Shown one piece after another: positions 19,934 through 45,018 of a stretch of 64,000 nucleotides of DNA. This stretch comes from Sulfurimonas sp. HSL1-2. Lineage in GTDB: Bacteria > Campylobacterota > Campylobacteria > Campylobacterales > Sulfurimonadaceae. A program made the position numbers and the translations under genes. The first letter of the stretch is position 1. Each line of letters begins with the position of its first letter. The stretch is taken from positions 2,415,573 through 2,479,572 of the forward strand of contig NZ_CP147914.1 in the NCBI RefSeq assembly GCF_039645565.1, read 5' to 3'. Below the pieces are notes generated by a model. That model did not search any database. It saw only the letters and a list, made by a program, of their open reading frames with translations, and was not told where the DNA came from.

Positions 19934-19974
19934 TAAAAACATCCCGGTAAAAGGAGGGGGGGGAAACCGGGATG
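19934..19974 (-). terminator. Intrinsic terminator with pyrimidine-rich loop
   Basis: Inverted repeat CATCCCGGT (19939-19947) and ACCGGGATG (19966-19974), perfect over 9 bp, followed on the minus strand by TTTTT at 19938-19934. On the plus strand the hairpin has no T tract, so the terminator points away from the Kef gene and toward its end. Confidence 0.65.
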
Positions 19975-20003
19975 CGCTTCATAGGTATATAAGGAGTGTA
20001 TAA

Positions 20004-20036
20004 ATGAAACTCAATGACTGCTACTGTTGTCGTTGA
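20004..20036 (+). CDS. Possible 10-residue Cys-rich peptide ORF
   Basis: An ATG at 20004 has a well-spaced AAGGAG at 19991-19996 and opens an 11-codon frame encoding MKLNDCYCCR. Three of its last five residues are cysteine, which recalls cysteine-sensing leader peptides. It lies antisense to the candidate small RNA. The AAGGAG is also the complement of that RNA's CTCCTT motif, so the apparent ribosome site may be an echo of the RNA element. Nothing directly downstream is a sulfur gene. Either reading is possible; I favour the RNA. Confidence 0.25.
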   Translation: MKLNDCYCCR

Positions 20037-20162
20037 GACAGGCGAATTATAGGGAAACAGAGGTAAACTGGCCGTAAACATGCAACTATAATACAAATCT
20101 TTTATATTATGTTTAAGTATAACAAATAGTTTTATTTCCCCTCTGCCCGCCGCCCCTTTCGC

Positions 20163-37443: not shown

Positions 37444-38652
37444 TTAGAAGTCGTAAGTCAGCTGGAATGTGGCGCCGAGCTGTGAGTGTGTCACTTCGTT
37501 GCTCGGTCCTGTCATCATACCGTCAAGTGCGGATGTATCGAATGAAACCTTCGTTTTCATTGCATAGCCGACCGCCAGGTCCACGGAAAGCTGGTCTGTC
37601 AACGGTGCAGAAGCACCGGCAGTAATATGGTTTTCTACGACTGCCGGGAAACCAAGCAGGTTGAAGACGTTGATTGCGGCACCTTCGAGTGTCGTACCGT
37701 CCGCCTCTTCGATCGGCTGTGCACCGTGGTTGAAACCGGCACGAAGGGCATACCCGTCTACCTCGAACTGGTACCCGACAGCATAAACATCCGTGTTTTT
37801 CCAGTTGAACTGTTTATACCCTTTCGCATCGCCCCATTTCACCTGCTTGTAGTCAAAAGCAATTGTGTTGTTGCGGGTCAACTTGAAAGAGAAACCGGCA
37901 CCAATTTCGGCCGGCTGCGTCAATTCATCCCCAAACGGGGCAGGCAGTATGCCCAGACCCGCGAAAGGCCCTGTTGCACCAGAAATCTGGCCCCGGTACT
38001 TCATCGGAATTTCAGCACGGTAAACGGCACCGACAGTCAAGGCTCCTACAGTATACGCGAGACCGGCGTTCCATGTCAGTTTCAGATCCTGCGCAAGGCC
38101 TTCACCGACAGTCGTTCCCATCGCATTGTAATTAATGTCCAACGCCCCGTATTGGACGATCGGTGTAAACCCGATGCTGAACCCGTTCATTTCATAAGCG
38201 AGCGGCACACCCAGCTGCATGAGCTGGAGCGCAGTGACCATATTCATAGTGCTTTGAGTATTCTCTCTGCGGTAATCCGTACCCATACCGGCAGTCCCCC
38301 AAATACCGATACCCCAGAAGAAGTGGTCACCGACCTTATTCCCTACTGAAACTTCAGGGATGACATTCAGATCCGCGGCGCTATCCTGTTTACCGTTACC
38401 GTCTTTGGCATCGTATTTGACATTCGGTGCGAAAAGCGTACCGCCGAATGAAATCTGAGTCCCCTTGACAGAACTCAACAACGCGGGGTTGTTAATCCCC
38501 GATTCGGCACCGAACGGCATCCCGATACTCACACCGCCCATCGCGCGTGATTTGGCACCCAGTCCGATCAGGTGGTCGCCGTTTGTTGCAAATGCGGATG
38601 TCGTTCCAAATGCCAATGCCGCAGCCACAGCCAATTTAATTGTACGTGTCAT
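37444..38652 (-). CDS. Outer-membrane transport protein, OmpP1/FadL/TodX family
   Basis: A 402-residue outer-membrane barrel with a signal peptide (RTIKLAVAAALAFGTTSAFA) and the FadL signature at the mature N-terminus (NGDHLIGLGAKSRAMGGVSI). The C-terminus ends with an aromatic-rich strand (GATFQLTYDF). Such proteins pass hydrophobic compounds. In sulfur oxidisers they have been proposed to take up elemental sulfur or polysulfide, which fits its place beside sox genes but is inference. The start has TAGGAG upstream on the minus strand. Confidence 0.88.
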   Translation of the reverse strand: MTRTIKLAVAAALAFGTTSAFATNGDHLIGLGAKSRAMGGVSIGMPFGAESGINNPALLSSVKGTQISFGGTLFAPNVKYDAKDGNGKQDSAADLNVIPEVSVGNKVGDHFFWGIGIWGTAGMGTDYRRENTQSTMNMVTALQLMQLGVPLAYEMNGFSIGFTPIVQYGALDINYNAMGTTVGEGLAQDLKLTWNAGLAYTVGALTVGAVYRAEIPMKYRGQISGATGPFAGLGILPAPFGDELTQPAEIGAGFSFKLTRNNTIAFDYKQVKWGDAKGYKQFNWKNTDVYAVGYQFEVDGYALRAGFNHGAQPIEEADGTTLEGAAINVFNLLGFPAVVENHITAGASAPLTDQLSVDLAVGYAMKTKVSFDTSALDGMMTGPSNEVTHSQLGATFQLTYDF

Positions 38653-44808: not shown

Positions 44809-45018
44809 GAGGTTTTTGAGAGGAATTGCAAAATATGTCAAATTTCTTTTTTTTGACCCTTTTTCACCCCATTTTTGTTACGAAAATATACACAAGTGGA
44901 AGTGTCGCCAGCAATAAGAACTATTTTCACGCCAAACCCTCTGAATTTATTTACTATCTGTTTGACATGGACCTTGTATAGTTCAGAAATCAAACTCCAA
45001 TATATAGAGGTATAGACT

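What the first reader, a model, noticed from the sequence alone, without database searches (positions are those of the whole stretch)
19934..20051. Candidate small RNA whose terminator loop is an anti-Shine-Dalgarno pyrimidine run
On the minus strand a TATAAT box (20051-20046) is followed about 65 bases later by a perfect 9-bp terminator stem with a T5 tail. The stem encloses an 18-base loop of nine C residues, then TCC and TTTT. A second CTCCTT lies in the unpaired part. No minus-strand gene ends here, so the terminator needs its own transcript. In Helicobacter, RepG RNA uses a C/U-rich terminator loop to pair with a G-repeat in a target leader; this has the same design, but with a much longer C run. 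The nine-base homopolymer could also vary in length and tune target choice. The sequence signals are direct; the small-RNA reading is inference.
Basis: partly seen in the sequence, partly recalled or inferred. Interest (0 to 1): 0.72.

Follow-up and report, generated by a model that had tools for sequence, protein, structure and literature searches.

The report
Envelope-stress small RNA in sulfur bacteria
The window holds what looks like a real small-RNA gene, shared by dozens of related sulfur bacteria, whose promoter resembles envelope-stress promoters and whose exposed parts mirror ribosome-binding sites, so it probably turns down production of exported proteins under stress.

Summary
The element is very probably a genuine minus-strand small-RNA gene, about 105 nt (about 20039 to 19935). 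I compiled 73 homologues in 11 genera of the window's family (consistent with Sulfurimonadaceae), 9 more in a twelfth genus and 2 in another family, in several gene neighbourhoods. Conserved parts: promoter box, -10, a covarying 5' hairpin, a linker complementary to a ribosome-binding site (in the window's genus, to a whole SD-to-ATGAAA start), and a terminator hairpin, pyrimidine-rich in its loop in 49 of 73. The box matches the published CpxR motif GTAAA-N6-GTAAA and ends 10-11 nt before the -10. In relatives, similar promoters lie before bamA, htrA, periplasmic HSP20 and CpxP/Spy-like genes, and also before non-envelope genes. Best reading: an envelope-stress small RNA that blocks translation of exported and outer-membrane proteins, working like MicA/RybB/CpxQ but unrelated to them. 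Best-pairing leaders found: a TonB receptor, a secreted protein and an OMPP1/FadL protein in the window's genome, an OprD porin in another genus. Transcription, regulator and targets are inferred, not shown. RepG is an analogy for the loop only. No Rfam family matches.

The parts
20063..20078 (-). Direct repeat TTTAC-N5-GTTTAC (plus strand GTAAA-N6-GTAAA), presumed activator site in place of a -35
   Evidence: Only match in the window, 0 mismatches (at up to 1 mismatch chance expects about 1, so not significant alone); conserved at fixed spacing to the -10 in relatives
20046..20051 (-). -10 element TATAAT
   Evidence: Read; TATAAT or TATACT at the same place in relatives, with TTAAAAT in G002
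19935..20039 (-). Predicted small RNA, about 105 nt
   Evidence: Predicted start about 7 nt after the -10, end at the T run; folds at z -4.6; ends not mapped experimentally
20010..20037 (-). 5' hairpin (CTCAACGAC ... GTCATTGAG)
   Evidence: Position conserved; covariation in a related genus
19988..20009 (-). Linker TTTCATTTATACACTCCTTATA, complement of TATAAGGAGTGTATAAATGAAA (SD to start codon); predicted to show CACUCCUU in a weak central hairpin
   Evidence: CTCCTT in 69 of 73 members at this place (members were anchored on CTCC)
19940..19974 (-). Terminator hairpin; loop 19949-19965 holds C8 (19956-19963) then TCC and TTTT
   Evidence: terminator loop pyrimidine-rich in 49 of 73 members
19935..19939 (-). 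T5 tail of the terminator

Best explanation
A trans-acting small regulatory RNA belonging to an envelope-stress regulon. An OmpR/PhoB-type response regulator, CpxR-like, binds the 11-bp direct repeat and activates the promoter. The RNA has a 5' hairpin, a linker antisense to a consensus translation start (SD through ATGAAA in the window's genus) and a terminator hairpin with a C/U-rich anti-SD loop. It pairs with translation starts of mRNAs for outer-membrane and other exported proteins, many of which start ATGAAA, and blocks ribosome binding while the same regulon raises BamA, HtrA and periplasmic chaperones. Supported by comparison: gene, promoter layout, 5' hairpin, linker. Inferred from motif and shared promoters: the regulator and the stress. 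Inferred from complementarity only: targets and repression.
For: 73 members in 11 genera plus 9 genomes of genus g2 and 2 of family f22, in different neighbourhoods. Promoter box at 10-11 nt from the -10 in 31 of 73 by a strict script and at 10 nt in 36 of 37 genus-g14 rows. 5' hairpin: 95.1% of cells paired, 13 double-change cells, 0 of 500 shuffles as high; 3 G-U cells are on this strand. Strict box plus -10 once per genome in 7 of 8 genus genomes, always here, reversed control 0. Relaxed promoter in 22 genomes: 25 hits, reversed control 2; 16 are the small RNA, 4 of the other 9 are bamA (2), htrA and a Bax1-I gene. bamA also in G000 and G004. Motif equals the CpxR motif (PMC9600279 passage). 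Target leaders: TonB receptor in G000, G004, G006 and OprD porin in G115; secreted protein in 4 genus genomes.
Against: No transcript, regulator or target has been measured. The box without a -10 is not clearly enriched (15 hits, reversed control 10). Promoter-type hits also lie before moxR, alaS, GGDEF, AhpC, MFS and unknown genes. In genus g14 the porin leader matches in 6 of 10 genomes, not in 4, and the genus-g1 porins do not match. Candidate targets were picked by a pattern derived from the linker. Two other measures of the covariation count are unremarkable (132 and 471 of 500 shuffles as high). In the window genus the 5' hairpin has a C-A mismatch on this strand that would be a G-U pair on the plus strand. 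The plus strand folds better. Genus g2 and f22 copies score too low for the models.
Confidence: 0.62

Rival explanations
1. The small RNA is real and under the same promoter, but serves one or a few lineage-specific mRNAs rather than exported proteins in general.
For: Only 1-2 leaders per genome match the long linker pattern apart from the RNA itself, none in G034; the matched gene differs between genera.
Against: Short pairings to SD and the loops would not be seen with that pattern; several exported proteins pair in one genome (preselected).
Confidence: 0.2
2. [quoted passage not shown]
For: C run varies from 4 to 9 in the genus; terminator loop pyrimidine-rich in 49 of 73; C run of 4 to 9 in the 5' hairpin loop of genus g2.
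Against: The C run is poorly conserved outside the genus while the linker is kept; among 53 window leaders the loop ranks no outer-membrane protein on top; no G-repeat leader was sought genome-wide.
Confidence: 0.1
3. A plus-strand feature: a short leader ORF (SD, ATG, MKLNDCYCCR) or the 3' end of the kefB-type mRNA.
For: SD and ATG with good spacing on plus; plus strand folds better.
Against: The ORF is not kept: two bases shorter in G001, other peptides in G018 and G002; T run, promoter box and -10 are on minus; the kefB neighbour is missing in other genera.
Confidence: 0.04
4. Only a transcription terminator, without a small RNA.
For: Terminator-like hairpin between genes.
Against: Conserved promoter, 5' hairpin and linker.
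Confidence: 0.03

Closest known systems
RepG (HPnc5490), Helicobacter pylori
   Same: Small RNA with two stem-loops whose C/U-rich terminator loop is the pairing site (passages of PMC8295292)
   Different: Lies between hp1043 and hp1044 and targets a G-repeat in tlpB; authors found no homologue outside Helicobacter; here the linker is the conserved part and the promoter box differs
CJnc230, Campylobacter jejuni
   Different: RpoN-dependent and encoded downstream of flgE; this one has a TATAAT promoter with a CpxR-like box
CncR1, Helicobacter pylori
   Same: Small RNA whose promoter is bound by an OmpR-family regulator (HP1043) at two half-sites 11 bp apart (passages of PMC5253667)
   Different: HP1043 half-site is TTTAAG (PMC8345958 passages), here TTTAC; listed target fliK (PMC8322730 passage)
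MicA, RybB and CpxQ of enterobacteria (recalled, no call)
   Same: Envelope-stress small RNAs that lower outer-membrane or inner-membrane protein synthesis
   Different: No sequence relation seen; different phylum; sigma-E or 3'-UTR origin, recalled
FoxJ of Fusobacterium nucleatum (title and abstract start only)
   Same: Sigma-E-dependent small RNA outside the enterobacteria
   Different: Other phylum and control

Membership tests
RepG family | C/U-rich terminator loop | tested here: met
   Loop TTCCCCCCCCTCCTTTT in the window
RepG family | Sequence homology and hp1043/hp1044 locus | tested here: not met
   Neighbours are kefB-type and RDD genes; authors report no homologue outside Helicobacter (PMC8295292 passage); no direct alignment to RepG was made
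RepG family | Pairs with a G-repeat in a leader | not tested
   No genome-wide search for G-repeat leaders
CpxR-type regulon | GTAAA-N5-6-GTAAA box | tested here: met
   GTAAACTGGCCGTAAA at 20063-20078 on plus; motif from PMC9600279
CpxR-type regulon | Box shared with envelope-folding genes | tested here: met
   bamA in 4 genomes, htrA in 3, HSP20 in 2, LTXXQ in 2; bamA of G004 by eye, LTXXQ of L379 has a degenerate box; non-envelope genes occur too
CpxR-type regulon | A CpxR protein that binds the box | not tested
HP1043/HsrA regulon | TTTAAG-N5-TTTAAG with the first AAG essential | tested here: not met
   First half-site is TTTAC or TTAC; consensus from PMC5253667 and PMC8345958
Outer-membrane-repressing envelope-stress small RNAs | Repression of outer-membrane protein mRNAs by pairing | tested here: inconclusive
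   Complementary leaders in some genomes, absent in others; repression needs experiments
Any Rfam family | Match to a covariance model | tested here: not met
   No match at the element in the window nor in 7 loci at E up to 2 (two weak archaeal snoRNA matches lie elsewhere in L001)

The most novel reading that the evidence does not exclude
Sulfur-oxidising Campylobacterota have an independently evolved counterpart of the sigma-E/Cpx small RNAs: a CpxR-like regulon (bamA, htrA, periplasmic HSP20, CpxP/Spy) that includes one family-wide small RNA built as a generic antisense of the translation start, SD through ATGAAA, with extra anti-SD hairpin loops resembling the 16S rRNA tail, to curb synthesis of exported proteins.
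Probability: 0.5. Interest if true: 0.75.

Novelty: new member of a known kind. Interest (0 to 1): 0.62.

Why it matters
The known small RNAs of this order that I met in print are from Helicobacter and Campylobacter; my searches (licensed PMC papers only, listings read) showed none in Sulfurimonadaceae and no envelope-stress small RNA in the phylum. A family with a defined promoter opens the envelope-stress response of environmental Campylobacterota to direct tests. It also asks how an RNA made of generic anti-ribosome-binding-site sequence chooses targets, and gives a candidate regulon (bamA, moxR, htrA, HSP20, LTXXQ) with one shared box.

Tried and rejected
Plus-strand leader peptide: frame not conserved. 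HP1043 site: half-site differs. Automatic consensus folding of the whole RNA found only the 5' hairpin, because terminator stems differ between genera. Weak hits of model R1 are largely opposite-strand translation starts, not homologues, so its tally of 99 of 228 genomes, and that of R2 of 115 of 228, must not be read as family size. Both models missed the genus-g2 copies, found through the promoter pattern. Seven of seven promoter-only R2 hits fetched from genus g14 are tRNA-Leu promoters with TTTAAG as second half-site. Target energies with the full RNA were dominated by long gapped duplexes and not used. The naming scan gave 51 stretches, 11 with titles of this order or its families; the other 40 were not examined and are probably chance.

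First I took an MMPL gene for the neighbour of the box in G000 and G004 (a fallback of my script, Pfam); one search shows that the gene after the box is a MoxR-like ATPase, as in G200 and G152.

The 73 members were chosen by me from near full-length R1/R2 hits; G095, G087, G016, G012, G029, G009 and G026 are weak. The strict promoter script parsed 31 of 73; of the other 42, 37 are genus-g14 rows re-read (one, G107, mis-anchored), 5 were read by eye.

Full report
WHAT IS THERE. On the minus strand TATAAT lies at 20051-20046 and a perfect 9-bp stem at 19940-19948/19966-19974, followed by T5 (19939-19935). The loop is 17 nt and holds C8, one less than reported in each case. The stem-loop pattern occurs once in the window and in 0 of 100 shuffles. 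The predicted 105-nt RNA folds at -25.5 kcal/mol, z -4.6, into three stem-loops: the 5' hairpin, a weak central hairpin showing CACUCCUU, and the terminator. The plus strand folds at -34.3, so strand choice rests on other evidence.

CONSERVATION. A DNA search of 60 relatives gave strong matches in 4 other genus genomes and partial ones in 2 more (G001, G005) and in G018; reading the loci added G002 and G031. A model of the 5' part and a sequence model of promoter plus 5' part were run on 228 family genomes, the second also on 398 order genomes. Reading the loci led to 73 members in 11 genera: g14 39, g1 8, g16 8, g8 4, g5 4, g12 2, g9 2, g3 2, g6 2, g13 1, g10 1. The promoter pattern added genus g2: G120 and G008, and with them G147 and six of the 20 regions fetched, nine genomes in all; and G057 and G263 of family f22. 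Neighbours differ: kefB-type/RDD, RDD/other, GGDEF-like and radical-SAM-like, ksgA-like, flagellar-hook-like (by eye, except the window's kefB-type, RDD and MFS genes, Pfam). So the element is its own gene.

ANATOMY. The promoter is TTTAC-N5-GTTTAC or GTTAAC, 10-11 nt, then TATAAT or TATACT in 31 of 73 by a strict script; genus g14 has mostly TTAC-N5-GTTTAC, 10 nt, CATAAT. The geometry is that of OmpR/PhoB-family activators. The 5' hairpin keeps its place while its sequence changes. On 36 of the 39 genus-g14 members its inner five pairs are paired in 95.1% of cells (shuffles 85.4), with 13 double-change cells (shuffles 2.6; 0 of 500 as high) and covariation score 0.273 (0.142; 0 of 500). The numbers of pairs with a double change (132 of 500 as high) and of pair types (471 of 500) are unremarkable. 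Three G-U cells favour this strand; the C-A mismatch in the window's genus does not. The linker is the complement of SD to ATGAAA in genus g1; the distance from CAT to CTCCTT varies elsewhere. CTCCTT is present in 69 and TCAT upstream of it in 63 of 73 (rows were anchored on CTCC). The terminator loop has five or more pyrimidines in a row with at least two C in 49 of 73. In the genus the C run is 8, 9, 6, 6, 5, 4, 4 and 4+3, always followed by TCC. In genus g2 the loop of the 5' hairpin holds a C run of 4 to 9. The window's 16S rRNA ends GGATCACCTCCTTTCT, so the loop shares CCTCCTTT with the anti-SD tail.

REGULON. In 7 of 8 genus genomes the strict box plus -10 occurs once, at the small RNA, reversed control 0. 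A relaxed form in 22 genomes gave 25 hits, reversed control 2. Sixteen are the small RNA. The other nine are bamA (G120, G008), htrA (G031), a Bax1-I gene (G067), and by eye alaS, an integrase, an aldo/keto reductase, one site inside a coding region and one short ORF. The box without a -10 in 4 genomes gave 15 hits against 10 in the reversed control, so it is weak alone. Three of the 15 are the small RNA; the other 12 are bamA (G000, G004), a MoxR-like ATPase (G000, G004), htrA, a cyclophilin, an outer-membrane efflux protein, a dCache sensor and an integrase-like gene (G031), and three without a gene in position. From 40 regions of weaker model hits I picked by eye 16 with a promoter-like match and followed them to a gene: HSP20 with a signal peptide (2), LTXXQ, the CpxP/Spy family (2, one with a degenerate box), htrA (2), OprD porin (1), MoxR (2), GGDEF, AhpC, ABC1 (over 400 nt away), three unknown, one without ORF. 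The choice was not blind. In the window a Bax1-I gene (45019 on) has a degenerate box, TTTAC-N5-GTTTGA-N11-TATAGT. The motif equals the published CpxR motif (PMC9600279 passage). CprR of C. jejuni, an essential OmpR-like regulator linked to the cell envelope (PMC9449129 passages), could be a relative; the paper with its motif is not held.

TARGETS. TTAAGGAGTGN{2,12}ATGAA in 8 genomes gave 10 hits, reversed control 0: 3 at the small RNA, 3 at one TonB-receptor orthologue (G000, G004, G006), 1 at an OprD porin (G115; 19 of 20 bases complementary to its own small RNA), 2 in G015 (a lipoprotein-like and a PAS-like protein, by eye), 1 small ORF in G031; G034 none. A secreted protein of unknown family has AGGAGTGTATATATGAAA in G000, G004, G006 and G007. 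In genus g14 the porin leader shares 11 to 14 bases around the SD with the local small-RNA complement in 6 of 10 genomes (G115, G082, G020, G105, G080, G102) and not in G034, G110, G112 and G091; the genus-g1 porins do not match. Linker pairing energies are -26.7 (TonB) and -26.0 (secreted protein) against -9.5 +/- 3.4 for 53 window leaders, but these two were preselected by the pattern; in the window itself the best are 7836 (moaE-like by eye) and then OMPP1/FadL at -16.7. This suggests, but does not show, exported and outer-membrane targets.

LITERATURE AND NOVELTY. No Rfam family matches the element. Nearest small RNAs of the order are RepG (PMC8295292), CJnc230 (PMC11187230) and CncR1 (PMC5253667, PMC8322730), seen as passages. 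MicA, RybB and CpxQ are recalled. Searches listed no small RNA of Sulfurimonadaceae; the library holds licensed PMC papers only.

VERDICT. A new small-RNA family by all comparative evidence. Confidence that the gene is real: about 0.93; that it belongs to an envelope-stress regulon: about 0.7; that it represses exported-protein mRNAs: about 0.65.

Noticed in passing
window 44949-44982, gene from 45019 on +: A Bax1-I (YccA-like) gene has a degenerate copy of the box at the same spacing; its relative in G067 has an exact box (L334).
   Followed up: partly
window 37447-38652 -: OMPP1/FadL outer-membrane protein whose leader TAGGAGTATAAATGA pairs second best of 53 window leaders with the linker.
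   Followed up: partly
L031 1513-1845 (G000 444176 region): Secreted Gly/Leu-rich protein without Pfam family, conserved leader in four genus genomes, next to a second similar gene (L022).
   Followed up: no
L124-L130 (genus g14): tRNA-Leu promoters with TTTAC-N5-TTTAAG before the -10, close to the HP1043 consensus.
   Followed up: no
L364, L367, L370 (other families of the order): Box and -10 followed by a CTCAA...TTGAG hairpin and no close gene start: possible further small RNAs.
   Followed up: no
L340 (G226, genus g2): C9 run in the loop of the 5' hairpin rather than the terminator, so homopolymer loops occur in either hairpin.
   Followed up: no
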